A DNA stretch of 64,000 nucleotides, taken from contig NZ_KI912613.1 of the NCBI RefSeq assembly GCF_000519325.1, positions 1,775,252 to 1,839,251 of the forward strand. Direction: 5' to 3'. Position 1 is the first letter of the stretch. Each line of letters begins with the position of its first letter. Positions 13,196-47,594 of the stretch are shown piece after piece. This DNA is from Patulibacter minatonensis DSM 18081. Its GTDB lineage: Bacteria; Actinomycetota; Thermoleophilia; Solirubrobacterales; Solirubrobacteraceae. The translations under genes were made by a program, and so were the position numbers. The notes beneath the pieces were generated by a model that was not told where the DNA came from, did not search any database, and saw nothing but the letters and a program-made list of their open reading frames with translations.

Positions 13196-13199
<4 letters not shown>
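12786..13199 (+). CDS. ureB: Urease beta subunit
   Basis: 137 residues from GTG 12786. [15 protein letters not shown], then [18 protein letters not shown] and [20 protein letters not shown], are the conserved jelly-roll segments of the beta chain. The C-terminal 30 residues ([20 protein letters not shown] and on) extend past the usual core, as in some actinobacteria. The stop overlaps the ureC start (ATGA), so subunits are translationally coupled. Confidence 0.97.
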
Positions 13200-14905
<1,706 letters not shown>

Positions 14906-17649: not shown

Positions 17650-19089
17650 TCAGCTCGTGGCGTCGGCGGTCTGGTGGGCGATCTTGGTCATCTCGTCGGT
17701 GTCGACGAGCTTGACGCGGGGCCGGCCCTGGGGTTCGCCAAGGGCCCGTTCGTGGGCGTCGATGCGCTGCCAGCCCGGGTAGTCGACGTGGTCGGGGACC
17801 CGCTCGGCGATCAGGTCGGCGATGTCGCTCTGGTCGGTGGGGGTCGGGAGCTTGCCGGCCTGGTGGTCGGCGGCGAGTTCGGCGATCGTGTCGTTGGCGC
17901 ACTTCTTGTTCGTGCCGATGATCCCGGAGGGGCCGCGTTTGATCCAGCCGGCGGTGTAGAGGCCGGGGATCGGGTCGCCGGTCTGCAGGTCGATGACGCG
18001 GCCGTCGAGGTTGTTGATCGTGGCGCGCTGCTCGTCGAACGGCACCCCGGGGAGGGGCCGGCCGCGGTAGCCGATGGAGCGCAGGACGAGGCCGGTCTGG
18101 ATCGTCTCGGTCTCGGTGGTGGGGCGGGCGGAGAGCCAGCCGTCGTCGTCGGCGACGAGTTCGTTCTTGACCAGCTCGATGCCCTCCACGCGGTCGGTGC
18201 CGATGAGCTTCACGGGGGAGGCGAGGAAGCGGAGGATCACACGGCGCTTCTTGCCCGTGGGGGTGCGGGTGGAGTATTCGGTGGCGATGTCGACGTTCTT
18301 CTGCTCGCGGGCGTCGGCGCCGTCGCGGTTCAGCCAGTTCTTGGAGCCCTCGTCGAGGTCGACGTCCTCCGGGGACACGATGATGTCGGCGTCCTCGAGC
18401 TCGCCGAGCTCGCGGAGCTCGGGGTTGGTGAACGCTGCTTGCGCGAGACCACGGCGACCGATCACGACGATCTCCTCGATCTCGGATTCCGCGAGTGCCT
18501 GGATGGCGTGGTCGGCGGTGTCGGTCACGGCCAGCTCGCCGGGGGTGAGGGCGAGCATGCGGGCGACGTCGACGGCGACGTTGCCGTTGCCGATCACGAC
18601 CGCGCGCTTCGAACTGAGGTCGAAGGTGAGGTCCTTGGCGTCGGGGTGGCCGTTGTACCAGGCGACGAAGTCGGTGGCCGCGACCGATCCGGGGAGGTCC
18701 TCGCCGGGGATCCCGAGACGTCGGTCGTGCGACGCGCCGGTGGTGTAGATCACGGCGTCGTAGCGGGCAGTGAGCTCGTCGTGCTGGACGTCCTGGCCGA
18801 TCTCGACACCACCGAAGTAGCGGAAGCCGTCCTTGGCCGCGACCTTGTCGTAGACCTTGATGACGGACTTGATCTTCGGGTGGTCCGGCGCGACGCCGAA
18901 CCGCACGAGGCCGTAGGGGGTCGGGAGGCGGTCGAAGAGGTCGACCCGGACCTCACCCTCGATCGCCTTGCCCGACAACAGCTGCGCGGCGGCGTAGAAC
19001 CCCGCCGGACCGGCACCGATCACGGCGAACTTCAAAGGACGGGCGCCCGATCCGTCGGTGCCCCGGTCGACCGAACCCTCCTGGGGCAC
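17650..19089 (-). CDS. FprA-type ferredoxin-NADP+ reductase (copy 1)
   Basis: 479 residues of the adrenodoxin-reductase/FprA family. FAVIGAGPAGFYAAAQLL binds FAD, VVIGNGNVAVDVARMLAL is the NADPH Rossmann motif, IGRRGLAQAAFTNPELREL follows, and GWIKRGPSGIIGTNKKCA closes the FAD site. It moves electrons from NADPH to a ferredoxin. It follows the nitronate monooxygenase gene with four bases between them, so the two are one transcript from the promoter carrying the site at 20122. Copies 2 and 3 are at 34496 and 46233. Confidence 0.92.
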   Translation of the reverse strand: MPQEGSVDRGTDGSGARPLKFAVIGAGPAGFYAAAQLLSGKAIEGEVRVDLFDRLPTPYGLVRFGVAPDHPKIKSVIKVYDKVAAKDGFRYFGGVEIGQDVQHDELTARYDAVIYTTGASHDRRLGIPGEDLPGSVAATDFVAWYNGHPDAKDLTFDLSSKRAVVIGNGNVAVDVARMLALTPGELAVTDTADHAIQALAESEIEEIVVIGRRGLAQAAFTNPELRELGELEDADIIVSPEDVDLDEGSKNWLNRDGADAREQKNVDIATEYSTRTPTGKKRRVILRFLASPVKLIGTDRVEGIELVKNELVADDDGWLSARPTTETETIQTGLVLRSIGYRGRPLPGVPFDEQRATINNLDGRVIDLQTGDPIPGLYTAGWIKRGPSGIIGTNKKCANDTIAELAADHQAGKLPTPTDQSDIADLIAERVPDHVDYPGWQRIDAHERALGEPQGRPRVKLVDTDEMTKIAHQTADATS

Positions 19090-19092
19090 GAC

Positions 19093-20136
<1,044 letters not shown>

Positions 20137-22695: not shown

Positions 22696-23553
22696 ATGGC
22701 ACGAACAGCGCTCCCACCGAGGGAGGAACGGGAGCCAGCTCCCCGCCTCACCGACCAGTTCGTCGGCACGGGGACCTACGAGCGGCTCGAGTCCGCCGGG
22801 CAGATGGGCGCGCTGGGTCTGCGCGTGATCTCCCTCGCCGTCCGCCCGCCGTTCACCTGGTGGCGCGAGGCGGTGCTGCAGGCGTCGATCGCCGTCCGGC
22901 GCTCGATCGTCCCGCTGACGCTGTCGCACATGGCGTTCCTGTTCGGGTTCCTGATCATCCTCTTCGGGGAGATCCTCTCGATCATCGGCGTCTCCGAACG
23001 CGAGGCGACCGCCACCTTCCTCTTCTGGAGCCGCGAGATCGGCACCTGGATCACGTCGATGATCTTCGCCGGCATCGTCGGCGCCGCGATCACCGCCGAC
23101 CTCGGCGCCCGCCGCATCCGCGAGGAGCTGGACGCCCTGGCCGTCCTCGGCGTCGACCAGGTCCGCTCGCTGGTCGTGCCGCGGGTCATCGCGTGCACGG
23201 TCATGACCCCGGTCCTCGTGCTCGTCTCGATCACGATGGTCAACGCCGTCAACTACATCGCCTACCCGCCGATGGTCGGCCCGTCGCCCGGCGTGGTCAA
23301 GGACGTCGTCGCGCAGGCCGTCCTGCCGCTGGACCTGCTGTTCCCCGTCCTCGTCAAGAACCTGCTCATCGGCTTCGTGATGGGCGTCGTCGCCTGCCAC
23401 AAGGGCCTCACCTGCAAGCTCGGCACCGAAGGGGTCGGCCGCGCGGTCAACCAGACGGTCCTGATCTCGTTCTTCGCCTGCTGGATGATCAACAGCTTCT
23501 TCAACCTGACCTACCTGAGCCTCTACCCCGACGCCGCCGCGGTGCGCGGCTAG
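22696..23553 (+). CDS. yrbEA: Mce-operon permease YrbEA (MlaE family)
   Basis: 285 residues with five or six membrane helices. FGFLIILFGEILSIIG, IVGAAITADLGARRIREELDALAVLGVDQVRSL and VIACTVMTPVLVLVS are the MlaE/YrbE hallmarks; the EELDALAVLGVD loop is the EExDAL coupling region that contacts the ATPase. With YrbEB it forms the inner-membrane channel of an Mce lipid importer. It is the first gene of an eight-gene operon ending at 32634. About 50 hydrophilic residues precede the first helix. Confidence 0.95.
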   Translation: MARTALPPREEREPAPRLTDQFVGTGTYERLESAGQMGALGLRVISLAVRPPFTWWREAVLQASIAVRRSIVPLTLSHMAFLFGFLIILFGEILSIIGVSEREATATFLFWSREIGTWITSMIFAGIVGAAITADLGARRIREELDALAVLGVDQVRSLVVPRVIACTVMTPVLVLVSITMVNAVNYIAYPPMVGPSPGVVKDVVAQAVLPLDLLFPVLVKNLLIGFVMGVVACHKGLTCKLGTEGVGRAVNQTVLISFFACWMINSFFNLTYLSLYPDAAAVRG

Positions 23554-23563
23554 GAGCCCGGTC

Positions 23564-24445
23564 ATGGCTGTCGGAACAACACCCACAGGCCGCGGGCTCG
23601 CGGATCGTCAGGGCCCGCAGCCCGGCGAGGACACGCCGCAGGTGGCGCCGCCCTCCGCGCGGAACGACGGCGCCTTCGTCGGCGGGATCCGTGAGCTCGG
23701 CGAGCTCATGATCATGATCGGCCAGGCGCTCCGCGCCCTCGTCTTCACCCCGCGGTACCTGTCCGAGATCCTGCGCTCGGCCTCGTCGATCATCCGCCGG
23801 ACGTCGCTGCTCATGTTCGTCATGAACGGCTTCCTCGGGATGAGCATCGTCAACGCGGCGTACTTCTTCCTCCGCGGTATCGGCGCCAGCGACTTCCTCG
23901 GCACCATCAGCGGCTACGCCGTGCCGCGCATCCTCGCGGTCCTCATGTTCGGCTACGTCTTCACCGCGGCCGTCTGCTGCGCGATCGCGGCCGAGATCGG
24001 CGCGATGAAGATCAACCAGGAGGTCGACGCCTACGAGTCCACCGGCGTCGATCCGCTGCGCTACCTCGTCGGCACGCGGTTCATCGGCGTCCTGATCTTC
24101 CTGCCGCTCGGCGCGCTGCTCGCGCTGCTCGGCGAGCTCGCCGGCACCTACCTCAACTCGGTGATCGTGCTGAAGGGCATCGGTGGCGCGCAGCTCCTGG
24201 ACCTCCACTGGAGCGTCCAGACGGTGAGCGACCAGCTCTACGCCTTCTTCACGATGGCGGCGATCGCGACCACGACCACGTTCGTCGCGTGCTTCTACGG
24301 ACTCCGCACGCGCGGCGGCCCGGCAGCGGTCGGCGAGGCGGTCGCGCGCTCGCTCCTCGTGAACCTCGTGATCGTCCACGTCGTCGCCGCCGCGTTCGCC
24401 GTCCTCTACTACAGCGGCAATCTCGCCCTGCCGATCGGAGGCTGA
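23564..24445 (+). CDS. yrbEB: Mce-operon permease YrbEB (MlaE family)
   Basis: 293 residues, ten bases after yrbEA. It shows VLMFGYVFTAAVCCAIAAEIGAMKINQEVDAYESTGVDPLRYL, whose NQEVDAYESTGVD part is the permease coupling loop, then VGTRFIGVLIFLPLGALLALL. A long hydrophilic N-terminus (about 45 residues) precedes the membrane part. It pairs with YrbEA as the heteromeric permease core. Downstream MCE proteins would form the periplasmic or cell-wall tunnel. Confidence 0.95.
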   Translation: MAVGTTPTGRGLADRQGPQPGEDTPQVAPPSARNDGAFVGGIRELGELMIMIGQALRALVFTPRYLSEILRSASSIIRRTSLLMFVMNGFLGMSIVNAAYFFLRGIGASDFLGTISGYAVPRILAVLMFGYVFTAAVCCAIAAEIGAMKINQEVDAYESTGVDPLRYLVGTRFIGVLIFLPLGALLALLGELAGTYLNSVIVLKGIGGAQLLDLHWSVQTVSDQLYAFFTMAAIATTTTFVACFYGLRTRGGPAAVGEAVARSLLVNLVIVHVVAAAFAVLYYSGNLALPIGG

Positions 24446-24450
24446 CCTCG

Positions 24451-25779
24451 ATGTCACCCCGCATTCGACGTCGCCTGACCGGCGGCCTGGTCCTCCTCGT
24501 CCTGGTGGCCCTCGTCCTCGTGACCCGCTCGGGCGATTCCGACGGCCAGAAGGACAACGTCCTGGTCGCCACCGTCAAGGACGCCACGAACGTCGTGCCC
24601 GGCCAGTACATCCGCGCCGCCGGCCAGATCGTCGGCGAGGTCGGGACGATCACCCCGACCGAGAAGGGCCGCTCCGTCAAGGTCGAGCTCCGGTTCAAGA
24701 ACGAGGTCTGGCCCGTCCGGCGCGGCGCCAAGCTCCAGCTCCGCTGGGGCGGCACCGTCTCCTACAACAACCGCTACCTGGCCTACACGCCGGGACCCGC
24801 AGGCGGCGCGGAGCTCCAGGCCGACGCGGGCTTCCCCGCGAAGGACATCACCGTCCCGGTCGAGTTCGACCAGCTCCTGGCGACCTTCGACAAGAAGACC
24901 CGCAAGAACGTCACGACCTTCGTGACGAACGCCGGCGGCGCGCTCAAGCCCGCGAGCGAGCCACTCCACGAGGCGCTGGAGGACACGCCGGCCGCGCTCG
25001 AGCAGACGAGCGCGCTGCTCCGCGACGTCGAGGGCAACCGTGCGCAGCTCGCGCAGCTGATCGACTCGGCCGACCGCGTCGTGGGCGCCGCCCGCGAGGC
25101 CAACCCCGACCTCCGCGCCCTCGTCACCGGCGGCGCACAGACCGTGAACCTGATCCGCGGCGACGCGAAGCAGGTCCAGGCGACCCTCGACAAGGTCCCG
25201 GGCACGCTCGACAAGATCCGCACGACGCTGCCGAAGGCGGACACGACGCTCGCCAAGGCCGACGACGTGACGCGCCGCCTGGATCCCGGCATCACCGAGC
25301 TCCGCGGGATCGCCAAGCCCCTGGACCGCACCCTCGGCACGCTCGCGGACGTCGCCCCGAAGGCCCGGCGCACGCTCGCGACGGTGGCCAAGGCGACCCC
25401 GGACGTCAACACGCTGCTCGCCAAGGCCACGTCCCTGGCCCCGACCATCACCGGCATCGGGCGGCAGGGCAACCCGCAGCTGAACTGCATCCGCCCCTAC
25501 ACGCCGGAGATCGTGTCCTTCCCATCGAACTGGGCGGACGTCTTCTCCTGGACGGACCACAAGGACAAGTACATCCGGGCCAACGTCCAGAACATCTTCC
25601 CGGCGGCGATCAACGCGTCGTCCTCGAGCTCGGGTGACCTGACGAAGCTGTTCCCGGGCCTGAAGTACGCCTTCCCGTTCCCGCCCGGCTACCTGGCCGA
25701 CCAGCCCTGGTACCTGCCGGAGTGCCACATCACGAAGGACTCCTTCGACGCGTCCAAGGATCCGGAGGCAGGCCGATGA
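24451..25779 (+). CDS. mceA: MCE protein A
   Basis: 442 residues from ATG 24451. There is one N-terminal membrane anchor (LTGGLVLLVLVALVLVTRS), then an MCE/MlaD domain at about residues 35-120 with VVPGQYIRAAGQIVGEVGTI and VELRFKNEVWPVRRGAKLQL. A long helical region with Leu/Ala heptads follows and the C-terminus contains QLNCIRPYTPEIVSF, common in this family. It belongs to the six-protein hexameric barrel that carries hydrophobic substrates through the cell envelope. The stop overlaps the next start (ATGA). Confidence 0.93.
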   Translation: MSPRIRRRLTGGLVLLVLVALVLVTRSGDSDGQKDNVLVATVKDATNVVPGQYIRAAGQIVGEVGTITPTEKGRSVKVELRFKNEVWPVRRGAKLQLRWGGTVSYNNRYLAYTPGPAGGAELQADAGFPAKDITVPVEFDQLLATFDKKTRKNVTTFVTNAGGALKPASEPLHEALEDTPAALEQTSALLRDVEGNRAQLAQLIDSADRVVGAAREANPDLRALVTGGAQTVNLIRGDAKQVQATLDKVPGTLDKIRTTLPKADTTLAKADDVTRRLDPGITELRGIAKPLDRTLGTLADVAPKARRTLATVAKATPDVNTLLAKATSLAPTITGIGRQGNPQLNCIRPYTPEIVSFPSNWADVFSWTDHKDKYIRANVQNIFPAAINASSSSSGDLTKLFPGLKYAFPFPPGYLADQPWYLPECHITKDSFDASKDPEAGR

Positions 25780-27245
25780 GGTCCACCAACACGCTCCGCT
25801 ACGGCCTGATGGCGATCGCCGTCTGCGCCGTCGGCATGTTCCTCGTCACCCGCGGCGGCGACGACTCCTACGACCTGAAGATCAAGCTGGCCGACGCCAA
25901 CGGCCTCCGGAACGGATCGCAGGTCGCGATCGGCGGCCTCGAGGCCGGCAAGGTCGAGCTCTCGGTCACCAAGGACCGCAAGAACGTCATCGCCGACGTC
26001 AAGCTCGACAGGAAGTACGGGCCGGTCGGCAAGGACGTCCGCGCGTCGATCGCCTCCGTCAACCTGCTCGGCCAGAAGCGCGTCGAACTCGACGTGGGCA
26101 ACCGCAACGACCCGGCGCCCGACGGCTACGAGATCCCCGCCGGTCGCACCGAGGTCGCCACCGATCTCGACCAGGTCCTCGGGGTGCTCGACCCCGACAC
26201 GCGCACCCGGCTGAAGGTCCTGATCAACGAGACCGGCGCCGCGTTCGCGGGCCGGAAGGCCGACGTCGACAACTTCGTCTTCGAGCTGCCCGAGTCGTTC
26301 GCCGCCGGCCGCAAGCTCGTCACCGCCCTCGCGAACGACAACCACACGCTCGCAGACCTCATCAAGAACTCCGACGGGTTCGTCGGCGAACTCGCCACCC
26401 AGCGCGAGAAGCTCGGCGACCTCGTCGACACCGCCGGCAAGACGGGCACCACGCTCGTGTCGCGGCGGGCACAACTGCGAGCGGGCCTCGCCAAGACGCC
26501 GGGAACGCTCGCGGAGCTGCGGACGTTCCTGGCGCGACTGGAGACCACCAGCGGGACCCTCGCGCCGGCCGCGAGGAAGATCACGGCGACCGCGCCGTCG
26601 CTCGTCGACACCCTCGGCCAGATCGAGCCCTTCCGCAAGGCCGCCCAGCCGACGTTCGCCCGCGCCGAGAAGGCCTCGCCGCCCCTGACGAAGCTCGCCA
26701 CCCAGGTCACCCCGGTCGTCCGCCAGGCCACCCCGGTGCTCGGCCAGCTCTCGACCACGGCGACCGCGCTGAAGCCCGTCACCCGCACGCTGGACAAGAG
26801 CGCCAGCAACATCATCGGCACCGTCTACAACTGGGCGCACGCCGTCCAGTTCGGGGACGCCGCGTCGAAGATCTTCCGCGGCGAAGCGGCGATCTCGCCG
26901 GACATCCTCAACACGATCATCCGCCGCGCCGAGGGCACGGGTCCGAACGTGTCGGATCCGAACGACAACACCCCGCGGGCGCGCAGCAAGACCACGCCCA
27001 CCAACCGGAGAGCCGCTCCGACGACCGCCCCGAGCGGTGGCGGCCGCGGCACGTCCGGGGGCGCCGGATCCGCGTCGCCGTCCACGCCGACGACGCCCGC
27101 GCCCCAGGATGGGCTGCTCGGCGGGCTCGTCGGCGGCCTGAACGGACTCCTCGGCGGGTCGCCCGCCGGGGGCAGGTCGCCCGACCCCGCGGACAAGGGC
27201 ACCGTGCCCGGACTCCTCAACTCCCTGCTCGGAGGTCCCCGATGA
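25776..27245 (+). CDS. mceB: MCE protein B
   Basis: 489 residues from ATG 25776. The anchor YGLMAIAVCAVGMFLVT is followed by the MCE domain (DANGLRNGSQVAIGGLEAGKVELSV and VRASIASVNLLGQKRVELDVG). Helical coiled segments occupy residues 150-370. The last 100 residues are low-complexity: Pro/Thr/Ser-rich, then Gly-Leu repeats such as GGLVGGLNGLLGG. This tail is longer than in the neighbours and may interact with the envelope. It is coupled to mceC by an ATGA overlap. Confidence 0.92.
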   Translation: MRSTNTLRYGLMAIAVCAVGMFLVTRGGDDSYDLKIKLADANGLRNGSQVAIGGLEAGKVELSVTKDRKNVIADVKLDRKYGPVGKDVRASIASVNLLGQKRVELDVGNRNDPAPDGYEIPAGRTEVATDLDQVLGVLDPDTRTRLKVLINETGAAFAGRKADVDNFVFELPESFAAGRKLVTALANDNHTLADLIKNSDGFVGELATQREKLGDLVDTAGKTGTTLVSRRAQLRAGLAKTPGTLAELRTFLARLETTSGTLAPAARKITATAPSLVDTLGQIEPFRKAAQPTFARAEKASPPLTKLATQVTPVVRQATPVLGQLSTTATALKPVTRTLDKSASNIIGTVYNWAHAVQFGDAASKIFRGEAAISPDILNTIIRRAEGTGPNVSDPNDNTPRARSKTTPTNRRAAPTTAPSGGGRGTSGGAGSASPSTPTTPAPQDGLLGGLVGGLNGLLGGSPAGGRSPDPADKGTVPGLLNSLLGGPR

Positions 27246-28591
27246 CGCGTCGATCCCTCGGTCGCCCGACACGTCGGCGCCGTCGTCGGCGCGAGCGCAT
27301 CAGCCCGCAGCGCGCGATGCTGCAGGCGGGCCTCGTCCTCGGCCTGATCGCGCTCGTGATCGCCTTCGCCGTCACGGCCTACAACGGCGTGCCCGGCAAG
27401 ACGTACCGGACCGCGTACGCGATCGTCCCGGCCACCGGCAACCTGATCAAGCACGACCAGGTGCGCATCGCCGGCGTCCGCGTCGGGCAGGTGACCGCGT
27501 CGACCATCGACCCCGACGGCCGCGCCCGTCTGAAGCTCCAGCTGAGCGGCGACACGAAGCTGCCCGAGGGCACCTCCGTCCTGGTCCGCGCCAACGGCCT
27601 GCTCGGTGCGCGCTTCGTCCAGCTCAACCCGGGCCGATCCAGCCGGATGCTGCCCGACGGCGCCGAGATCAAGGGCTCCGCGAACGCCCTCACCTACGGC
27701 GTGCCCGAGGCCATCGACACCTTCGACAAGCAGACGCGTGGCGCCATGGGGACGTCCGTCCGTGAGCTCGGCGCCGGGATGGTCGGCAACGGCAAGCGGC
27801 TGAACGAGACGATCGAGCGAGCCTCGGACATCAGCCAGCCGTTCCAGACGCTGGTGGCGACCGTCCTCGCTCCGCCCGGGGCGGCCGAGCGTCTCGTCCC
27901 CGCCCTCAACCGGCTGATGATCCCGTTCAACGCGTCCCGCGAGGGCTACACCGCGATGGTGCCCCCGGCGGACAAGACGCTCCAACCGTTCGTCGACCAA
28001 CGCGCTGCCGTCCACGCGACGCTCGACGGCACCGCGCCCACGCTGGACGCCGTCAAGCAGGCGTCCTCCACGGGCCAGCGGCTCCTCGCATCGGTCGACC
28101 GCCTGTCGGGCGCCGCCAACCGCACGCTGCCCCGCGCACCGGGCGCGCTCCGCGCCACCACCGCGTTCTTCGAGGAGGCCCCGACGCCGCTGAACAAGAC
28201 GTCGGACCTCCTCGAGCGGGTGCCCTCCGCGGTACCGGCCACCACGAAGATCACCGACAGCGTCAGGACCCTGCTCGACCCCCTCGACGAGGGCCTGAAG
28301 ACCCTCGTCCCGATCTCGAACACGCTCGGCGACTACGGGTGCGACATCGAGAACTTCGGCGTCACGCTGCGCAGCATGACCGGGTACGGCGGAGACTCGA
28401 TCGCCGTCGGAAAGGGCGAGCTCGGTGAGCCGGCCGGCGCGTTCCGGGTCCACGTCGTCGTGCCGTCCCCGACCGAGCTGCTGCAGATCAAGAACAACGA
28501 ACCGGTCGGTCGTCGCGACGGCTACCCCGCGCCGTGCAAGTACGTCAGCACCGAATACCCCACGTTCCTCCCGCAGGACGGTACCCCCTGA
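27242..28591 (+). CDS. mceC: MCE protein C
   Basis: 449 residues. A very basic N-terminus (RRRRRRRERISPQRAM) precedes the anchor AGLVLGLIALVIAFAV. The MCE domain carries LIKHDQVRIAGVRVGQVTAS and GTSVLVRANGLLGARFVQLNPG. The helical middle part and a C-terminal YGCDIENFGVTLRSM segment are typical. It has no lipobox. The last base of the stop is the first base of the next ATG (TGATG). Confidence 0.92.
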   Translation: MTRRSLGRPTRRRRRRRERISPQRAMLQAGLVLGLIALVIAFAVTAYNGVPGKTYRTAYAIVPATGNLIKHDQVRIAGVRVGQVTASTIDPDGRARLKLQLSGDTKLPEGTSVLVRANGLLGARFVQLNPGRSSRMLPDGAEIKGSANALTYGVPEAIDTFDKQTRGAMGTSVRELGAGMVGNGKRLNETIERASDISQPFQTLVATVLAPPGAAERLVPALNRLMIPFNASREGYTAMVPPADKTLQPFVDQRAAVHATLDGTAPTLDAVKQASSTGQRLLASVDRLSGAANRTLPRAPGALRATTAFFEEAPTPLNKTSDLLERVPSAVPATTKITDSVRTLLDPLDEGLKTLVPISNTLGDYGCDIENFGVTLRSMTGYGGDSIAVGKGELGEPAGAFRVHVVVPSPTELLQIKNNEPVGRRDGYPAPCKYVSTEYPTFLPQDGTP

Positions 28592-29940
28592 TGCGCAAGC
28601 TCCTCGAGCGGTACGACAAGCCCTTCATCGTCGGCGCGGTGACGCTCATCGCCGTCCTCCTGATCATCGGCGTCGCCTTCAGCGGGGCGCACAAGAAGCT
28701 GTTCCGTGCCAGCGGCCACGAGATCACCGCGATCTTCGAGAACGCGCAGCAGCTCCGCGCCGGCGATCCGGTGCGGGTCAACGGCGTCGACTCGGGAGAG
28801 GTCGCGCACATCAAGCTCCGCGACGACGCGCGCAGCGCCGTCGTCACGATGCGCGTGGAGGACAAGGCCGGCGAGGTCTACGCCAACGCTCGCGCGGACA
28901 TCCAGTTCCGCTCCCTGCTCGGCGGATCCATGTACGTCTCCCTGAACCGCGGCACGGCGGACGCCGGCGAACTCGGCGCGAAGAGCATCGACCTCAAGCG
29001 CACGACGGCCCAGGTCGAGCTCGATGACGTCAGCACGATCGTGAAGGGCAGGACCAAGCGTGGACTCCGGAGCCTTCCGACGGAGCTCGGCAAGGCCTTC
29101 TCGGACCCGCGGGATCCGGCCCGCGGGATCCAGGAGCTCGCGAAGGTCGCTCCCGACGTCCGGCGGGGCGCACGCGCCCTCCGCGGCGTGGCCGAGGGCA
29201 CGGACCTCCAGCGCCTGATCCGCAACACCGCCCGGACCGTCCGGGCGCTGGACACGAAGGACCAGGGCGTGCAGAACCTGATCTCGGGCACCGCAGCGAC
29301 GCTGCAGACGATCGGGAACCGCAGCGCGGACCTCCGAGCGCTGTTCCGCGACACGCCGGCCGTCGCAGCGCGCGTCGATCAGACCATGGACCGCATCGTG
29401 CCGACGCTCGCGGGCGCCGACACCCTGCTCGACAAGCTCCACGACCCTGCGGTCGATGTCGCTCCGACGGTCCAGCACCTCCGACCCGCGGTGGTCAGTG
29501 CCGACACGACGCTGAACGCCGCCCGCCCCCTGCTGCGGTCCCTCCCGAGGGCGACCACCGCGCTCGCCGCCGCTGCGAAGGACGGCAAGCCGCTGCTGGA
29601 CGAGCTCACGCCCAGCCTCGAGAGGCTCGACCAGAAGATCCTCCCCAACTTCGACAAGAAGGATCCGCAGACCGGCTACACGGTCGCCGAGATGTTCGGC
29701 GCCGGCGCCGGAGGACTCGCCGGAACCACGGCGCAACGCGACGCCAACGGGCACTTCATCCGCTTCGCCGCGTCGGTCGGCAGCAATCCGCTCTACGGAC
29801 CCTGCCAGCTGTACTTCGGCGAACCGGAGCACAAGAGCGAGCTGCTGCAGTGCCAGGACCTGAGCAAGACCGTCAGCGACGTGCTCGGCCCCCTCGGGCT
29901 GACCGGCCCGAAGTCCGCGGCGAAGGGCAGGAACCGATGA
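28591..29940 (+). CDS. mceD: MCE protein D
   Basis: 449 residues from ATG 28591. The anchor FIVGAVTLIAVLLIIGVAFSG is followed by the MCE domain (QQLRAGDPVRVNGVDSGEVAHI, ADIQFRSLLGGSMYVSLNRG). Residues about 130-370 form helices with regular hydrophobic spacing. The C-terminal segment NPLYGPCQLYFGEPEHKSELLQCQDL has two cysteines that could form a disulphide outside the membrane. It overlaps mceE by ATGA. Confidence 0.92.
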   Translation: MRKLLERYDKPFIVGAVTLIAVLLIIGVAFSGAHKKLFRASGHEITAIFENAQQLRAGDPVRVNGVDSGEVAHIKLRDDARSAVVTMRVEDKAGEVYANARADIQFRSLLGGSMYVSLNRGTADAGELGAKSIDLKRTTAQVELDDVSTIVKGRTKRGLRSLPTELGKAFSDPRDPARGIQELAKVAPDVRRGARALRGVAEGTDLQRLIRNTARTVRALDTKDQGVQNLISGTAATLQTIGNRSADLRALFRDTPAVAARVDQTMDRIVPTLAGADTLLDKLHDPAVDVAPTVQHLRPAVVSADTTLNAARPLLRSLPRATTALAAAAKDGKPLLDELTPSLERLDQKILPNFDKKDPQTGYTVAEMFGAGAGGLAGTTAQRDANGHFIRFAASVGSNPLYGPCQLYFGEPEHKSELLQCQDLSKTVSDVLGPLGLTGPKSAAKGRNR

Positions 29941-31250
29941 TCAATCCGCGCGAGCACCGCTCCGAACGCGTCAACCTCGCCCGCTTCAAGCTCGAGGCCA
30001 AGCGCGGGATCGGCCCGGGCATCACGGTCCTGATCGCCCTGCTGGCGACCGTCCTCATGGGCGCGTTCGTCATCTCCAAGGTCTCACGGACCCTCTTCAA
30101 GCCGACGCAGGAGATCCGGTTCGAGGTCAAGGACGCCACCGCCCTCGTTCCCGGCATCCACGAGGTCCGCTTCCGTGGGATCCCGGCCGGCACGGTGACG
30201 AAGGTCGAGAACGGCAAGACCCCGATCATCACGGTCAAGCTCCAGAAGAAGTACGGCGAGGTGTACCGCGACGCCAAGGCCGAGCTCCGGCCGATCACCG
30301 CGCTGCAGGACCTCAACCTGGACATCGTCGACCCCGGCCGGCCGGCCGCGGGCAAGGCGACGTACGACGAGCCGCTGCCGACCTCGCAGACCTCGACCGC
30401 AGTCCGCGTCGACCAGGTCCTGAACGCCTTCCGGCCCGACACGCGTGCGCAGCTGCGAAGCCTGATCGACAACCTCGGCAACGGGCTGGCCGACAACGGC
30501 ACCCGCCTGCAGGAGGCCTTCGTCGAGCTCGCGCCGCTCCTCCGCGTCGCCGGCAACGCGACGGAGCAGTTGAGCCGCCGCGAAGACCTCACCAAGGGTC
30601 TCGTCCGCAACACCGCGCTGGTCACCGACGAGCTCGGCCGCCGCGACGGTCAACTGCGCACCCTGGTCAAGGACCTCGGGAGCACGGTCGCCTCGCTCCG
30701 CGACGGATCGGGCGACCTCGACGCCACGCTGCGCAGCCTGCCGCCGACGGTCACCTCCGTCGACTCGAGCTTCGCCGCCCTCCGCGCCGCGCTCGACGAC
30801 GTCGACGGCGCCGTGAAGAGCCTGAACCCGGTCGCGGACGAGCTGCCCTCGTCGCTCTCCGACCTCAAGCGGGTGAGCGACTCCGCGCGCCCGGCCCTCG
30901 ACGCCCTGAAGACCCCGGTGAGGAAGCTCGTACCGCTGACCGGCGTCCTGCCGAAGGCCAGCACGGACCTGCAGACCGCGGTGTCGCTGCTGCGCCCGCA
31001 GCTGCCGCCGGTCCTCGACAAGATCACGACCGACCTCGTCAACTGCGAGAAGGGCATCAACGGCTTCTTCCAGTGGGACGCGTCGATGACGAAGTTCGGC
31101 GACATCCACGGCCTGAGTCCCCGAGGCAACCTCTCGGTCGGCGCCTCCTCCAGCGGCCTGATCAAGGGCCCCGGGTACGGCCCGAACCCGAGCTGCGTGC
31201 CCGGCGGCCCCATCGGCGGTCGTCCCGTCCGCGAATCCGACAAGCGGTGA
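29937..31250 (+). CDS. mceE: MCE protein E
   Basis: 437 residues from ATG 29937. About 30 polar residues come before the anchor GITVLIALLATVLMGAFVIS. The MCE domain contains ATALVPGIHEVRFRGIPAGTVTKV and ITALQDLNLDIVDPG. In several actinobacteria the fifth Mce protein is a lipoprotein; here no lipobox cysteine is visible, so attachment is by the transmembrane helix alone. The C-terminus has VNCEKGINGFFQWD and NPSCVPGGPIGG. Confidence 0.92.
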   Translation: MINPREHRSERVNLARFKLEAKRGIGPGITVLIALLATVLMGAFVISKVSRTLFKPTQEIRFEVKDATALVPGIHEVRFRGIPAGTVTKVENGKTPIITVKLQKKYGEVYRDAKAELRPITALQDLNLDIVDPGRPAAGKATYDEPLPTSQTSTAVRVDQVLNAFRPDTRAQLRSLIDNLGNGLADNGTRLQEAFVELAPLLRVAGNATEQLSRREDLTKGLVRNTALVTDELGRRDGQLRTLVKDLGSTVASLRDGSGDLDATLRSLPPTVTSVDSSFAALRAALDDVDGAVKSLNPVADELPSSLSDLKRVSDSARPALDALKTPVRKLVPLTGVLPKASTDLQTAVSLLRPQLPPVLDKITTDLVNCEKGINGFFQWDASMTKFGDIHGLSPRGNLSVGASSSGLIKGPGYGPNPSCVPGGPIGGRPVRESDKR

Positions 31251-31257
31251 GCTGACC

Positions 31258-32634
31258 ATGAAGAGCAACGCGAAGTACCCCGTCCAGCTCATGATCGTGC
31301 TCGCCGCGATCGTGGTCGCCGTCGGCGGCTCCGTCGGCTTCCTCTCGCTCGGCGGGGCGCTGCACACCGGCAAGAGCCAGACGATCCGAGCCCTCGTCCC
31401 GAGCGCCGCACTGCTCGCCCCCGGCGCGCGCGTCACGATGGCCGGCGCCGAGGTCGGCTCCGTGAAGGCCGTGGAGCGTCGGGGTTCCGCGGCGCTGGTC
31501 ACGATGAACGTGACCGACGACCGGGTGCTCCCGGTCGCCGAGGACGCCCAGGTCGCGGTGCGCCAGCGCACTCCGATCGGCGAGAACTACATGGACCTCG
31601 TCCCCGGCCGGTCGCGCACGACGCTGAAGTCCAGTGCGGTGCTCCCGGTCGCCAGCGCCTCCGAGTACGTCGATGCCGACCAGGTCCTCTCGATGCTCCA
31701 GGGCAAGGCCAAGGAGCGCACGAGGAAGCTGTTCCAGGGCGTCGGCAGCGCCGTCGACGGCCGGGGCAAGCAGCTCAACGAGACGGTCTCGGGCGTGAGC
31801 GACACCTTCATCCCGACCACCAAGGTCGTCAAGACGCTCTACGACCAGCGCGCGACGCTCGCACGTCTCGTCGACCGACTCGGCTCCCTCAGCTCGCTGA
31901 CCGCAGAGCGCGGCGCGAGCATCGAGCAGCTCGGCCGCGACGGCGCCGCCGCCTTCCAGGCCGTCGCGGACCGGGACGACCGGATCCGCGAGCTCGTGCA
32001 GACGTTGCCCGGGACCCTCGCCGCTGCGAAGCGGACCAGCGGCATCCTCGACACGACCAGCGAGAACGCGACCCCGCGGGTGAACAACCTCGCCGCGGCG
32101 GTCGACGAGGTCCGGCCGGCCGTCGATGCCCTGCGTCCGGCGACGCAGAACGGGCGGAGCCTGCTGCGTGAGCTGACGCCGACCGCACCGAAGCTCTCGC
32201 AGACGCTCGACCAGGTCAAGGCCGCCTCGACCCCGGTGACCGACGCGATCCCGGGCGTGCGGAAGCTCGTCTGTCAGATCAATCCGATGTTGAAGTACAC
32301 GCAGCCGTACACGAAGGACTTCGCCGCGTTCATCATCGGGTTCGGCTCGTCGACCAACAGCTACGACAACGTCGCCCACGCGATCCGTCTGGCGCCGGTC
32401 TTCAGCGAGAACACGCTCGTGGGGCTCCCGCGAGAGACCGTCGAGTCGTTCCACAAGCTGCTGCGCTCGGGCGTGCTCAGCCAGACCGTCGGACCGATCG
32501 ACTTCGACCCGTTCCCGAAGCCCAACCAGGTCGGCGCGAACACCTCGTACGACCGGGGCCAGAACACGATCCTCGGCCCGAAGGAGCTCCGCGAGAGCGG
32601 CTTCAAGTACCCGCGGATCACGCCGAGCTGCTGA
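31258..32634 (+). CDS. mceF: MCE protein F
   Basis: 458 residues from ATG 31258, eight bases after mceE. The anchor QLMIVLAAIVVAVGGSVGFLSL is followed by an MCE domain with ALLAPGARVTMAGAEVGSVKAV and VRQRTPIGENYMDLVPG. Extended helices run to residue 330, then LVCQINPMLKYTQPYTKDFAAFI, the usual C-terminal signature. It is the last gene of the operon, which is closed by the strong hairpin at 32676-32712. Confidence 0.93.
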   Translation: MKSNAKYPVQLMIVLAAIVVAVGGSVGFLSLGGALHTGKSQTIRALVPSAALLAPGARVTMAGAEVGSVKAVERRGSAALVTMNVTDDRVLPVAEDAQVAVRQRTPIGENYMDLVPGRSRTTLKSSAVLPVASASEYVDADQVLSMLQGKAKERTRKLFQGVGSAVDGRGKQLNETVSGVSDTFIPTTKVVKTLYDQRATLARLVDRLGSLSSLTAERGASIEQLGRDGAAAFQAVADRDDRIRELVQTLPGTLAAAKRTSGILDTTSENATPRVNNLAAAVDEVRPAVDALRPATQNGRSLLRELTPTAPKLSQTLDQVKAASTPVTDAIPGVRKLVCQINPMLKYTQPYTKDFAAFIIGFGSSTNSYDNVAHAIRLAPVFSENTLVGLPRETVESFHKLLRSGVLSQTVGPIDFDPFPKPNQVGANTSYDRGQNTILGPKELRESGFKYPRITPSC

Positions 32635-32675: not shown

Positions 32676-32712
32676 ACGACGAGGGCCCGGTCGATGACCG
32701 GGCCCTCGTCGT
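32676..32712. terminator. Strong bidirectional hairpin between mceF and the mce ATPase
   Basis: Perfect 17-base arms (32676-32692 and 32696-32712) around a GAT loop; the inner arm reads GACGAGGGCCCGGTC. It lies between two convergent genes, so it can stop transcription from both sides. It has no long T-run. Confidence 0.8.
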
Positions 32713-32745: not shown

Positions 32746-33933
32746 TCAGTCCATCCCGAGCGGACCCTCGGGCGCGCCGGAGAGGAACTGCTTGAGGAAC
32801 GGCTTGTCGGACGCGTAGATCTGGTCTGCCGGGCCGGACTCGAGGATCGTGCCGTCGTAGAGCACCGAGATGTGCTCGCTGACCTCCTTGATGAGCGGGA
32901 GGTTGTGCGTGATGACGACCATCGTCCCGCCGGTCAGCGCGTGCTGCTCGACGAGCAGCTCGGCCAGCAGCTTCGTGCGCACCGGGTCGAGGCCGGAGTC
33001 GGGCTCGTCGCAGAGGATGATCCGCGGATCGAGCACCATCGCGCGAGCCAGGCCGGCGCGCTTGCGCATGCCGCCCGAGAGCTCGTTCGGGTACCGCTTC
33101 GACGCGCTCTCGAGGCCGACGCTCTGCAGCCGGTCCATGACCAGCTCCTTGATCTGCGACTCGCTGAGGTCGGTGTGCTGCCGGAGCGGGAACGCGACGT
33201 TGTTGTAGACGTCCATGATGCTGAAGAGCGCACCGTCCTGGAACATCACGCCGATGTCCGTGCGCAGCGCGAGGAGCTCGGAGCGGCTCATGTTGCGCAG
33301 CGGCTTGCCGTGGATCACGACCTCGCCGGCGTCGGGGGCCAGGAGCCCGATGATGTGCTGGAGCAGCACGCTCTTGCCGGTGCCGGAGGGACCGAGGACC
33401 GTCGCGATGACGCCCTCGGGGATCTGGAGGTCGACCCCGCGGAGGATCGACGCGCGGCCGAAGGACTTGTGGACCCCCCGCGCCTCGATCGCCGCGATGT
33501 CGTTGTCGATCGCCGCGATCGAACGGCCGTCCGTCGTGGTCGATGCCCGCGGGGCACCCGACTGGTCGGTGAGCAGGCGCCGAAGCACCGGGTCGACCTC
33601 GAGGTACTGGCGGATCGGCCCGGAGAACGTCGCGAGGCCGGCCGAGAGGATCGTCGGCATGTGGAGCTCGCCGCGGGCGAACAGGCGCCCCTGCTCGGGG
33701 GTCAGCCCGATCTCGATGTCAGCGGGTCGACCGCCGTCACCGATCGAAGGATCGCCGTCGAGGTCGAGGAAGACGCGACCGTCCTCCCCGGCGACCCGGA
33801 TCTCGACCGTCGCCCGGGCGTACCCGAGCCGGGGCACGACGGGCGAACCCGAGTCCATGACGCCACGGAGCGCCCGCTCGATGGTGGGGATGGCGGTCAC
33901 GTCGATCTCTTCTGGCGCATGCCTGACGTCCAC
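32746..33933 (-). CDS. Mce-type ABC ATPase with N-terminal SCP2-like domain
   Basis: 395 residues from GTG 33933, chosen because GAGGAG lies nine bases upstream; the frame is open further up through the promoter region. Residues 1-125 resemble an SCP2 sterol-carrier domain (RATVEIRVAGEDGRVFLDL, ADIEIGLTPEQGRLFARGEL, TFSGPIRQYLEVDPVLRRLL). The ATPase follows with Walker A GPSGTGKS at 181-188, a Q-loop in VMFQDGALF, signature LSGGMRKR at 285-292, Walker B RIILCDEPDSGLDP and VVITHN. It should energise YrbEA/YrbEB. MceG ATPases normally lack the SCP2-like part, and are usually encoded away from mce operons. Confidence 0.9.
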   Translation of the reverse strand: MDVRHAPEEIDVTAIPTIERALRGVMDSGSPVVPRLGYARATVEIRVAGEDGRVFLDLDGDPSIGDGGRPADIEIGLTPEQGRLFARGELHMPTILSAGLATFSGPIRQYLEVDPVLRRLLTDQSGAPRASTTTDGRSIAAIDNDIAAIEARGVHKSFGRASILRGVDLQIPEGVIATVLGPSGTGKSVLLQHIIGLLAPDAGEVVIHGKPLRNMSRSELLALRTDIGVMFQDGALFSIMDVYNNVAFPLRQHTDLSESQIKELVMDRLQSVGLESASKRYPNELSGGMRKRAGLARAMVLDPRIILCDEPDSGLDPVRTKLLAELLVEQHALTGGTMVVITHNLPLIKEVSEHISVLYDGTILESGPADQIYASDKPFLKQFLSGAPEGPLGMD

Positions 33934-34055
33934 GGGTGGCGACTCCTCGCTCGCTGGACACGACTCGGGCGGCCCACCGGCCCGCGCCACGTCTCGTCCC
34001 GATCCGTGGCGTCGGTCACAGTGACCGCACAGTGGTCGCAGACTACACCATTCAT

Positions 34056-34235: not shown

Positions 34236-34499
34236 ATGAGCTACGTCATCACCCAGTCCTGCTGCAACGACGCGATCTGCGTCGCCGTCTGCCCGGTGGA
34301 CTGCATCCACCCGACCCCCGACGAGCCGGGGTACGCGACGACCGACCAGCTCTACATCGACCCCACCCTCTGCGTCGACTGCAACGCCTGCGCCGAGGTC
34401 TGTCCCGTCTCCGCGATCCGACGCGAGCAGGAGCTCCCCGACGCGCTGCGGCCGTACGCCGGCATCAACGCCGGGTACTTCGCGGCGGCCCGGGCGTGA
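34236..34499 (+). CDS. 7Fe-type ferredoxin (copy 1)
   Basis: 87 residues from ATG 34236. Cysteines at 9, 15, 19 and 23 ([15 protein letters not shown]) and at 46, 49, 52 and 56 ([13 protein letters not shown]) form a 3Fe-4S/4Fe-4S pair as in FdxA-like ferredoxins. There is an extra C10. It is a soluble electron carrier. The stop overlaps the start of an FprA-type reductase (GTGA), so reductase and ferredoxin are co-produced, probably to feed the P450 or Rieske oxygenase encoded at 53-56 kb. Confidence 0.92.
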
Positions 34500-35887
34500 G
34501 CGCCGCGCTCCGGGTGGCCGTGGTCGGGGCGGGCCCCGCCGGCGCCTACGCCGCCGAGCGACTGGTCGAACGTCCGGGCGTCGAGGTCGAGCTGTTCGAA
34601 CGGCTCCCCACACCCTGGGGGCTCGTCCGCGCGGGCGTCGCACCGGACCATCCCGAGACGAAGGACGTGACGCAGGCCTTCCAGTGGACCGCGTCGGACC
34701 GCGCCGTGCGCATGCACCTGAACGTCGAGGTCGGCCGGGACGTCTCCGCGGAGGACCTCGCCGCCCACCATCACGCGGTGATCTACACGGTCGGCGCGCC
34801 CACCGATCGCCGGCTCGGCATCCCGGGCGAGGACCTCCCGGGCAGCCACGCGTCGACGGCGCTGGTCGCCTGGTACAACGGCCACCCGGGGGCGCGCGAC
34901 CTGGGCATCGACCTCTCGGGAACGCGCGCGGTCGTCGTCGGCAACGGCAACGTGGCGCTCGACGTCGCGCGGATCCTCACGCTCCCCGTCGAGGTCCTGC
35001 GCCGCACCGACATCGCCGACCACGCCCTCGACGTCCTCGGCGACAGCGCGGTCGAGGAGGTCGTCGTGCTCGGCCGTCGCGGGGCGGCGCAGGCCGCCTT
35101 CACCACCCCCGAGCTCCTGGCGCTGAGCCACCTGCCCGGCGTCGACGTCCGGGTCGACGCCGAACCCTCGGAGCTCGACGACGGGTCGCGGGCCACGACG
35201 CCCGGGCGGCCGCCGGACTACGCGGTGGGGCTGAAGCTCGACCTCCTCCGGGCGCTGTCGGTCCGCGAGCCCACCGGCGCGCCGCGGCGGATCGTGCTCC
35301 GGTTCCTGGCGTCCCCGGTCGAACTCGTCGGCGACACCGCCGTCGAGCGGCTCCGGATCGCGCGCAACGAGCTCGTGCAGGACGAGGACGGACGGGTCGG
35401 CGCGCAGCCCACGGACCGGATCGACGAGCTCGAGGCCGGCCTGGTGCTGCGCTCCATCGGCTACCGAGGCGAGGCCCTGCCGGGCGTCCCGTTCGATCCC
35501 ACCGCCGGCCGGATCCCGAACGACCGCGGTGCCGTCGTCGACCCGGCGACCGGCAAGACGGTCCCGGGGCTCTTCACCGCGGGGTGGATCAAGCGCGGGC
35601 CGACCGGCGTCATCGGCACGAACAAGGTCTGCGCGCGGGAGACCGTCGATCGCCTGCTGGCGGACCACGCGGCCGGTCGACTGCCGGCTCCGCGCGGGGG
35701 CCGGCGGGAGCTCGACGAGCTGCTGCGCCGCCAGGTGCCCGAGGCCCTCGGACTGGACCACTGGCGCCGCCTCGACGAGCACGAGCGGCGGACCGGCGCA
35801 CCGCAGGGCCGCCCGCGGGTGAAGGTCACCGAGGTCGACGAGATGCTCCGCGTGGCGCACGCCCCCGAGTCGGCGGCGTCCCGGTGA
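34496..35887 (+). CDS. FprA-type ferredoxin-NADP+ reductase (copy 2)
   Basis: 463 residues from GTG 34496. [18 protein letters not shown] (FAD), [18 protein letters not shown] (NADPH), [19 protein letters not shown] and [18 protein letters not shown] are all intact. It is co-translated with ferredoxin 1 upstream and with the racemase downstream (GTGA at both ends). The three reductase copies in the window share the same motifs but differ in their middle part. Confidence 0.92.
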
Positions 35888-46232: not shown

Positions 46233-47594
46233 TCAGGCCCCGGCGGCCGCGAGCAGCTCGTCGCGGTCGGTGAGCTTCCGGCGCGGTCGACCCTCGTCCG
46301 CGCCCGCCCGGGTCTCCGCGGCGTCGATCGCGCGCCAGCCGCCGGTGTCGACGATCCGTGCACCCCCCTGCTCGAGCCGCTCGCGGACCGCGTCGGCGTC
46401 GAGCACACCCTCGTGGTCGAGCTGCCCGGCGAGCGCATCCTCGATCACGAGCGTCGCCGTGTCGTAGGCGCAGAGCTTGTTCGTGCCGATCACCCCACTC
46501 GGCCCGCGCTTGATCCAGCCGCTGACGTACGTGCGGGCTGCGGCCTCCGGATCCCCGGTCACGCGCCCGGCCATGTTCGGGATCAGCGAGCGTCGCTCGT
46601 CGAACGGCACGCCCGGCACGGGACGTCCGCGGAAGCCGATCGCGCTCATCACCAGCGAGGCGTCGAGCTCCTCCGTCGCGTCCGTCGGTCGGGCGAGGAT
46701 CGCCCGGTGCTTCCCGCGGTGGAGCTCGTTCCGCGCCAGGCGCAGCCCGCGGACACGACCGTCCTCGCCGAGGATCTCCACGGGGGAGACGAGGAAGCGC
46801 AGCACGATCCGCCGCTCGGCCTCGGTCGGCGCCGCGCGGGCCACGCCGCGAAGCACCTTCATGTTGCGCACGGCGCGATGCCCTGGCTGCGTCGTGTTGA
46901 ACGATGGGTCGATCGCGAGCTCGTCCCGCGGCATCGTCACCCCGAAGCGGCTCGTGAGCGCCTTGAGCTCCGGAGTCGTGAAGGCGGCGTGCTCCGCGCC
47001 CCGCCGGCCGAGCACCACGACCTCGCGGATCCGGCTCTCCGACAGCGCCTCGAGGGCGTGGTCGGCGATGTCGGTGCCGGAGAGCTCGTCGGGCGGCAGG
47101 AGCAGCATCCGCGCGCAGTCGAGCGCGACGTTGCCGTTGCCGACGATCACGGCGCGATCCCCCGAGAGGTCGAAGGTGCGGTCGCGGAACGCGGGGTCGC
47201 CGTTGTACCAGGAGACGAAGTCGGTGGCCGGGTGGCAGCCGGCGAGATTCTCGCCGGGGAGGCCGAGGCTGCGAGCGTCGGGGCATCCGGTGGCGTAGAC
47301 CACGGCGTGGTACCAGCGCTGGAGGTCGGCGTGCTCGACGTCGCGGCCGACCTCGACGCCCCCGAGGAACCGGCAGCGCCCGGAATCCAGCACCGCCTCG
47401 AACCGCCGCGCGACGGTCTTGATCCGCGGGTGGTCCGGTGCGACGCCGCCGCGGACGAGACCCCACGGCGTCGCCTGGCGGTCGATGAGGTCGACGTCGA
47501 ACGACGCGGCCTCCTCGTCCAGGAGCCGTGCGGCGAGGAAGGCGCCGGAAGGGCCGGAGCCCACGATTGCCACGCGACGTCGTCCCGCATCCAT
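46233..47594 (-). CDS. FprA-type ferredoxin-NADP+ reductase (copy 3)
   Basis: 453 residues. VAIVGSGPSGAFLAARLL (FAD), [18 protein letters not shown] (NADPH), [19 protein letters not shown] and GWIKRGPSGVIGTNKLCA are intact. It is monocistronic and divergent from ferredoxin 2 (47787); the intergenic region has two palindrome copies. Site 8 ends only 18 bases before its ATG, and TAGACT lies between, so the transcript may be nearly leaderless. Confidence 0.92.
   Translation of the reverse strand: MDAGRRRVAIVGSGPSGAFLAARLLDEEAASFDVDLIDRQATPWGLVRGGVAPDHPRIKTVARRFEAVLDSGRCRFLGGVEVGRDVEHADLQRWYHAVVYATGCPDARSLGLPGENLAGCHPATDFVSWYNGDPAFRDRTFDLSGDRAVIVGNGNVALDCARMLLLPPDELSGTDIADHALEALSESRIREVVVLGRRGAEHAAFTTPELKALTSRFGVTMPRDELAIDPSFNTTQPGHRAVRNMKVLRGVARAAPTEAERRIVLRFLVSPVEILGEDGRVRGLRLARNELHRGKHRAILARPTDATEELDASLVMSAIGFRGRPVPGVPFDERRSLIPNMAGRVTGDPEAAARTYVSGWIKRGPSGVIGTNKLCAYDTATLVIEDALAGQLDHEGVLDADAVRERLEQGGARIVDTGGWRAIDAAETRAGADEGRPRRKLTDRDELLAAAGA

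What the first reader, a model, noticed from the sequence alone, without database searches (positions are those of the whole stretch)
32746..33933. Mce ATPase fused to an SCP2-like sterol-carrier domain
The first 125 residues before the ABC ATPase resemble an SCP2 sterol-binding fold, with the ADIEIGLTPEQGRLF strand/helix and the terminal amphipathic helix. MceG/MlaF proteins normally consist of the ATPase only. A lipid-binding part on the cytoplasmic energiser would hand imported substrate directly to the cell interior or sense it. The gene is also placed next to its mce operon, unlike the usual unlinked mceG.
Basis: partly seen in the sequence, partly recalled or inferred. Interest (0 to 1): 0.78.

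Follow-up and report, generated by a model that had tools for sequence, protein, structure and literature searches.

The report
Lipid-carrier domain fused to Mce ATPase
In this soil actinobacterium (probably a Patulibacter) the engine subunit of an Mce-type lipid importer carries its own sterol-carrier (SCP2) domain, a recurrent arrangement in its family that suggests imported lipid is handed to a tethered carrier as it arrives in the cell.

Summary
The gene lies on the minus strand (33933..32746, GTG start, 395 aa). Residues ~11-125 form an SCP2 domain and 147-395 a complete MceG/MlaF-type ATPase. The window's own N-domain hits no Pfam family. Its SCP2 identity rests on homologues that hit PF02036 (two fused ones above the curated cut-off), on a profile match to solved SCP2s, and on an AlphaFold model (pLDDT 89) whose best PDB matches are all SCP2 (Z about 12). 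No in-frame start lies between residues 116 and 189, so no downstream start gives SCP2-free ATPase. The arrangement is not a one-off. Fusions occur in 9 genomes of 4 genera, all in the window's family. Other mceG genes there have a separate SCP2 gene directly upstream or downstream. The own genome has one such pair overlapping by ATGA. The tree suggests fusion arose more than once. No fusion was found among MceGs outside that family. The claim that mceG is usually unlinked holds for mycobacteria, not for other actinobacteria. Most likely mechanism, inferred only: the SCP2 domain accepts or senses the hydrophobic substrate at the cytoplasmic mouth of the transporter. I found no publication describing it. 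Verdict: real, a new variant of a known kind.

The parts
32746..33933 (-). SCP2-MceG fusion gene, 395 aa, GTG start at 33933
   Evidence: translation; SD GAGGAG, GC3 and start-codon survey
33559..33903 (-). SCP2 (sterol carrier protein 2) domain, residues ~11-125
   Evidence: AF2 pLDDT 88.7; Foldseek/VIA all-SCP2 top hits, Z ~12; profile vs PDB; PF02036 on homologues
33496..33558 (-). linker, residues ~126-146, partly low-confidence
   Evidence: pLDDT under 50 at residues 131-138; poorly conserved and of varying length in alignment A1
32749..33495 (-). MceG/MlaF-type ABC ATPase domain, residues 147-395
   Evidence: PF00005 99.7 bits; best PDB sequence match MceG of M. smegmatis 8fed; best fold match 8fed
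33370..33393 (-). Walker A GPSGTGKS (residues 181-188)
   Evidence: sequence; invariant in A1
33067..33081 (-). ABC signature LSGGM (residues 285-289)
   Evidence: sequence; invariant in A1
33943..33948 (-). Shine-Dalgarno-like GAGGAG, 9 nt before the GTG start
32676..32712 (.). 17-bp perfect inverted repeat with 3-nt loop between the convergent last mce gene and the ATPase gene; likely shared two-way terminator
   Evidence: no T-run terminator was called there
22696..23553 (+). permease 1 (YrbE/MlaE)
   Evidence: PF02405 139.3 bits
23564..24445 (+). permease 2 (YrbE/MlaE)
   Evidence: PF02405 136.3 bits
24289..32634 (+). six Mce proteins (ORFs 24289-25779, 25722-27245, 27242-28591, 28534-29940, 29850-31250, 31258-32634; listed starts are the longest possible)
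   Evidence: PF02470 MlaD in all six

Best explanation
The gene encodes the ATPase of an actinobacterial Mce-type ABC lipid importer with an SCP2 domain attached to its N-terminus. As in other MCE systems, two copies would sit on the cytoplasmic side of the two permeases (22696-24445), below the ring and tube of the six Mce proteins (24289-32634). Two SCP2 domains would then lie at the cytoplasmic face. I propose that they accept the hydrophobic substrate as it leaves the permease cavity or the inner leaflet and hold it in the SCP2 tunnel, for hand-off to the acyl-CoA ligases, oxygenases and CoA-transferases encoded around it. Shown here: fold, fusion, intact ATPase motifs, cognate mce operon, recurrent linkage. 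Inferred from known MCE systems: homodimer, position, import direction. Proposed only: lipid binding and hand-off.
For: SCP2 fold. ATPase closest to MceG 8fed and MlaF in sequence and fold, with Walker A, LSGGM signature and DEPDSGLDP intact. All fusion loci with enough flank carry an mce operon or permease gene of the same subfamily: L023, L031, L034, L043, L077-L080 and L140. SCP2 and mceG also occur as adjacent separate genes: upstream with an ATGA stop/start overlap in the same genome, upstream in L029, L041, L044 and L068 with 150-240 bp between the domains, downstream in L022/L142 of genome G008. In the own genome 2 of 5 mceG have an SCP2 within 300 bp, 0.011 expected by random placement, P 1.5e-5. 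On the ATPase tree the fused label needs 4 changes and cannot be put on one branch: a main clade of 10 (94/87) plus L025, L046 and the degenerate pair L033/L045 apart from it. SCP2 is a soluble lipid-binding fold (1pz4, among the closest matches, holds a C16 fatty acid). Surroundings: AtuA, P450, Rieske oxygenase, AMP ligase, acyl-CoA dehydrogenases, wax-ester synthase, CoA-transferases and aldehyde dehydrogenase.
Against: No binding, transport or expression data. The window's SCP2 is a divergent member with no direct Pfam hit. Cavity lining and entrance could not be inspected (no coordinates or PAE returned). The relative placement of SCP2 and ATPase is unknown; the linker is low-confidence. 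Most sampled MceGs of the order work without a nearby SCP2, so the domain is not required for MCE transport in general. Import rather than export is inferred from other Mce systems.
Confidence: 0.5

Rival explanations
1. Regulatory sensor: the SCP2 domain binds the imported lipid or its CoA thioester and turns ATP hydrolysis up or down (feedback), as the STAS protein MlaB is reported to regulate the MlaF ATPase, rather than carrying cargo.
For: MlaB, a cytoplasmic STAS protein bound to each MlaF, is reported as a regulator of MlaFEDB (PMC7790496). The own genome has only two STAS hits, neither near an mce locus, so an MlaB equivalent is missing and SCP2 could take that role. SCP2 is covalently fixed to the ATPase in several lineages.
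Against: No homology between SCP2 and STAS was tested or claimed. Most sampled mceG in the order have no nearby SCP2. SCP2 also occurs as a separate gene, which fits either role.
Confidence: 0.27
2. Structural role: the N-terminal domain stabilises the ATPase dimer or its contact with the permeases, replacing the C-terminal extension of mycobacterial MceG; lipid binding is vestigial.
For: M. smegmatis MceG has a ~120-aa C-terminal extension important for function (PMC9882608). The window protein ends where the match to 8fed ends (residue 394 with chain residue 250), so it lacks that extension. The domain is divergent and lost its Pfam signal.
Against: The other four MceGs of this genome also end at GPLGM(D/E/N) and none of them has a fused SCP2, so lack of the extension does not call for an SCP2. 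Separate SCP2 genes next to mceG suit an interacting partner better than a mere dimer clamp.
Confidence: 0.15
3. Artefact: start too far upstream, or a sequencing error joining two genes.
For: Pfam is blank for this N-domain.
Against: Ten homologues with the same in-frame fusion, two above the Pfam SCP2 cut-off; coding-like GC3 and SD site at the GTG; no in-frame start between residues 116 and 189.
Confidence: 0.02

Closest known systems
MceG (Mkl) of the Mycobacterium smegmatis Mce1 transporter, PDB 8fed
   Same: ATPase domain aligned over residues 149-394, E 1.7e-77 by sequence, best fold match; works with two YrbE permeases and six Mce proteins
   Different: 8fed MceG has a C-terminal extension (PMC9882608) and no reported SCP2; mycobacterial mceG is not linked to mce operons, here it adjoins one
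MlaF of the MlaFEDB phospholipid transporter (PDB 6xbd, 6xgy)
   Same: homologous ATPase (E 2.8e-58), second-best fold match
   Different: MlaF has a separate STAS partner MlaB; here an SCP2 domain is fused and no STAS gene lies near the mce loci
SCP2 family: SCP2 (1c44, 2c0l_B), SCP2-like domain of MFE-2 (1ikt), mosquito SCP2 (1pz4), yeast SCP2 (4jgx)
   Same: fold over nearly the whole domain, Z ~12; profile E 3.7e-6 to 4jgx
   Different: 9-15% identity in the VIA alignments; fused to an ABC ATPase rather than to an enzyme or standing alone
YrbE (DUF140) fused to an ABC ATPase in Rhodopirellula baltica (RB3287)
   Same: precedent of a domain fusion within an MCE-type transporter (PMC1810536)
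   Different: there the permease is fused; here a lipid-carrier domain

Membership tests
MceG/MlaF-type ABC ATPase | closest to MceG/MlaF among solved ABC ATPases | tested here: met
   8fed E 1.7e-77, then MlaF entries, ahead of other ABC ATPases; Foldseek ranks 1-18 are MceG/MlaF; MlaF is also the best NCBIfam hit, 211 bits, but under that E. coli-type equivalog's cut-off of 441
MceG/MlaF-type ABC ATPase | intact Walker A, signature, Walker B/D-loop and H-loop | tested here: met
   GPSGTGKS, LSGGM, DEPDSGLDP, T342-H343 invariant in A1
MceG/MlaF-type ABC ATPase | works with two YrbE/MlaE permeases and Mce proteins | tested here: met
   two PF02405 and six PF02470 ORFs adjacent; genetic linkage only, no interaction tested
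SCP2 family | SCP2 fold | tested here: met
SCP2 family | sequence match to PF02036 by the window protein itself | tested here: not met
   no hit for P0002 or its N-domain; genome-wide PF02036 search at E<=1 misses it
SCP2 family | homologues match PF02036 above the curated cut-off | tested here: met
   L013:12370-12810 29.7 bits; fused L034 21.6 and L046 21.9 vs 21.3
SCP2 family | binds a lipid in an internal tunnel | not testable with these tools
   needs coordinates with cavity analysis or an assay
Mycobacterial MceG | long C-terminal extension after the ABC domain | tested here: not met
   protein ends at GPLGMD, residue 395; match to 8fed ends at residue 394; extension described in PMC9882608

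The most novel reading that the evidence does not exclude
A branch of MCE importers in Solirubrobacterales has built a cytoplasmic lipid acceptor into the motor: SCP2 domains on the ATPase dimer take the substrate from the permease and deliver it to metabolism, a cytosolic counterpart of the periplasmic carrier MlaC, with SCP2-mceG pairing arising repeatedly and each fusion dedicated to its own mce operon.
Probability: 0.45. Interest if true: 0.8.

Novelty: new variant of a known kind. Interest (0 to 1): 0.62.

Why it matters
How a lipid leaves an MCE transporter on the cytoplasmic side is, to my knowledge, open: the Mce1 structure paper says ATP hydrolysis likely drives substrate 'into the cytoplasm or IM' (PMC9882608). 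A transporter whose ATPase is covalently joined to a soluble lipid carrier, with the same pair also occurring as adjacent genes, points to a cytosolic acceptor and gives a tractable protein for testing it. It also shows a lipid-binding-type domain on an ABC ATPase that standard Pfam annotation misses.

Tried and rejected
Pfam, NCBIfam and PDB sequence searches with the window's N-domain alone gave nothing; only profiles from homologues and the fold search resolved it. The fold search with the full-length model listed only ABC ATPases, so the domain was modelled alone. Genome contigs returned only five loci. One Pfam call failed on a wrong ORF frame and was redone. Literature searches for an SCP2-Mce ATPase link found nothing relevant; one further hit on sterol carrier protein with Mce4 was not read. 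Rejected: a start-site or sequencing artefact (conserved in-frame fusions); 'linkage to the mce operon is unusual' (PMC1810536); SCP2 as a general MCE component (absent within about 1.5 kb of most sampled MceGs).

Full report
WHAT IS THERE. The gene runs on the minus strand from 33933 (GTG) to 32746 and encodes 395 residues. A GAGGAG ends 9 nt upstream of the GTG; GC at third positions is 0.90 in the N-terminal part and 0.98 in the ATPase, against 0.59 upstream of the GTG. After residue 116 the next in-frame start codon is at residue 189, inside the ATPase. So the domain cannot be removed by choosing a later start.

THE ATPASE. Residues 147-395 are an ABC ATPase (PF00005) closest to MceG of M. 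smegmatis (8fed, E 1.7e-77) and MlaF; a fold search gives the same ranking. Walker A GPSGTGKS, signature LSGGM, DEPDSGLDP and H343 are present and invariant among ten fused homologues. The protein ends where the match to 8fed ends, so the ~120-residue C-terminal extension of mycobacterial MceG (PMC9882608) is absent.

THE N-TERMINAL DOMAIN. Alone it hits nothing in Pfam, NCBIfam or PDB sequences. Homologues resolve it. A standalone relative in the same genome (G000:C1:822402-822740) hits PF02036 with 29.7 bits, cut-off 21.3. Two fused relatives pass the cut-off (21.6 and 21.9 bits). 16 of 20 relatives hit it at E<=1. The 20-sequence profile finds yeast SCP2 4jgx (E 3.7e-6), then alkylsulfatase SCP2-like domains and other SCP2s. 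The AlphaFold2 model of residues 1-130 (pLDDT 88.7, pTM 0.81) matches SCP2 structures in all top Foldseek rows, with VIA Z ~12 to 2c0l_B, 1c44, 1pz4 and 1ikt.

WHERE IT OCCURS. P. medicamentivorans contig NZ_AGUD01000191.1 (L080) has the length, 30,792, of contig C163 of G123 and the same match, and G123 is in the window's genus. The window is therefore probably Patulibacter (Thermoleophilia, Solirubrobacterales). In-frame SCP2-MceG fusions were found in nine genomes (G000, G008, G055, G114, G116, G118, G120, G123, G127) of four genera, all in the window's family; the G116 copy is cut by a contig end. Outside that family no fusion was seen in a class-wide (399 genomes) or a phylum-wide (396 genomes) draw, which overlap. 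Those searches use a cut-off and a profile made from the fusions, so very divergent SCP2 parts could be missed. A local profile scan of the loci around MceG matches (about 1.5 kb on each side) found no SCP2 in the sampled MceGs from other classes (L090, L092-L107).

FUSED, OVERLAPPING OR ADJACENT. In the own genome a second mceG (761241) has an SCP2 gene directly upstream; stop and start overlap as ATGA and a GAGGAG lies just before the ATG. It is followed by two permeases and six mce genes. Similar upstream SCP2 genes occur in L029, L041 and L044 (same genus) and in L068 (another family of the order). In G008 the SCP2 gene follows mceG. On a tree of 72 MceG ATPase domains plus two outgroups, ten fusions form a clade (94/87, just under the starred level), while L025, L046 and the long-branched L033/L045 fall elsewhere; the fused label needs four changes. 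Repeated fusion is the simplest reading, but repeated fission is not excluded. In the own genome two of five mceG have SCP2 within 300 bp; 0.011 expected, P 1.5e-5.

THE OPERON. Two MlaE/YrbE permeases and six Mce proteins lie at 22696-32634 on the plus strand, convergent with the ATPase gene; a 17-bp perfect inverted repeat with a 3-nt loop (32676-32712) sits in the 111-bp gap, probably a shared terminator. Fusion loci elsewhere adjoin mce genes of the same subfamily, in various orientations. The island around it encodes AtuA (acyclic terpene utilisation), P450, Rieske oxygenase, AMP ligase, acyl-CoA dehydrogenases and wax-ester synthase, plus nitronate monooxygenase, aldehyde dehydrogenase and two CoA-transferases. 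Other fusion loci sit among different oxidative genes: P450, extradiol-type dioxygenases and FAA hydrolase in L078, an aromatic-ring hydroxylase in L079, AMP ligase and a short-chain dehydrogenase in L080. That suggests each system serves a different hydrophobic substrate.

MECHANISM. Shown: fold, fusion, intact motor, cognate operon, recurrent association. Inferred from MCE biology: homodimer on the cytoplasmic side, import. Proposed: SCP2 takes or senses the lipid at the cytoplasmic mouth. A regulatory role like that reported for MlaB on MlaF (PMC7790496) is the main rival; the genome has no STAS gene near its mce loci. I put hand-off at about 0.5, regulation 0.27, structure 0.15.

NOVELTY. 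I found no paper in the open library describing an SCP2-MceG fusion or linkage (one hit was not read). The library lacks most subscription papers and protein architecture databases were not available, so prior notice cannot be excluded. I class it as a new variant of a known kind.

Noticed in passing
L138:4371-6158 (G123) and L141:3316-4833 (G127): SCP2 fused to ABC ATPases with a degenerate signature (LSNW instead of LSGG) and TRD in place of the H-loop THD/THN; one also has a degenerate Walker A (GPPTTGRS). Neither has mce genes within about 12 kb or the contig seen; possible pseudo-ATPase lipid sensors.
   Followed up: partly
L140:3968-5266 (-) and 18966-20000 (+), genome G120: One mce operon flanked by two SCP2-MceG fusion genes, which could form a heterodimeric motor.
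   Followed up: partly
window 34496-62361: Catabolic island: AtuA terpene-utilisation protein, CoA-transferases, aldehyde dehydrogenase, P450, Rieske oxygenase, AMP ligase, acyl-CoA dehydrogenases, wax-ester synthase; could hint at the substrate.
   Followed up: partly
window 17650-19089 (-), 34496-35887 (+), 46233-47594 (-): Three similar pyridine-nucleotide-disulphide (ferredoxin-NADP reductase-like) oxidoreductases within 30 kb, the middle one next to the fusion gene.
   Followed up: no
G000:C1:822402-832050 (L147): Three standalone SCP2-like genes around a carboxyltransferase, AMP ligase and acyl-CoA dehydrogenase, about 6 kb from an mceG without an mce operon nearby.
   Followed up: partly
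own genome 725648-727165 and 4649558-4651075: Permease pairs with identical scores at two distant places (and one more at 5519935), suggesting a recent duplication of part of an mce operon.
   Followed up: no
window 13346-13634 (-): Rfam match to the 5' ureB sRNA family (75.5 bits), antisense to a urease alpha-subunit gene at 13196-14905; probably similarity of the coding sequence rather than a real sRNA.
   Followed up: no
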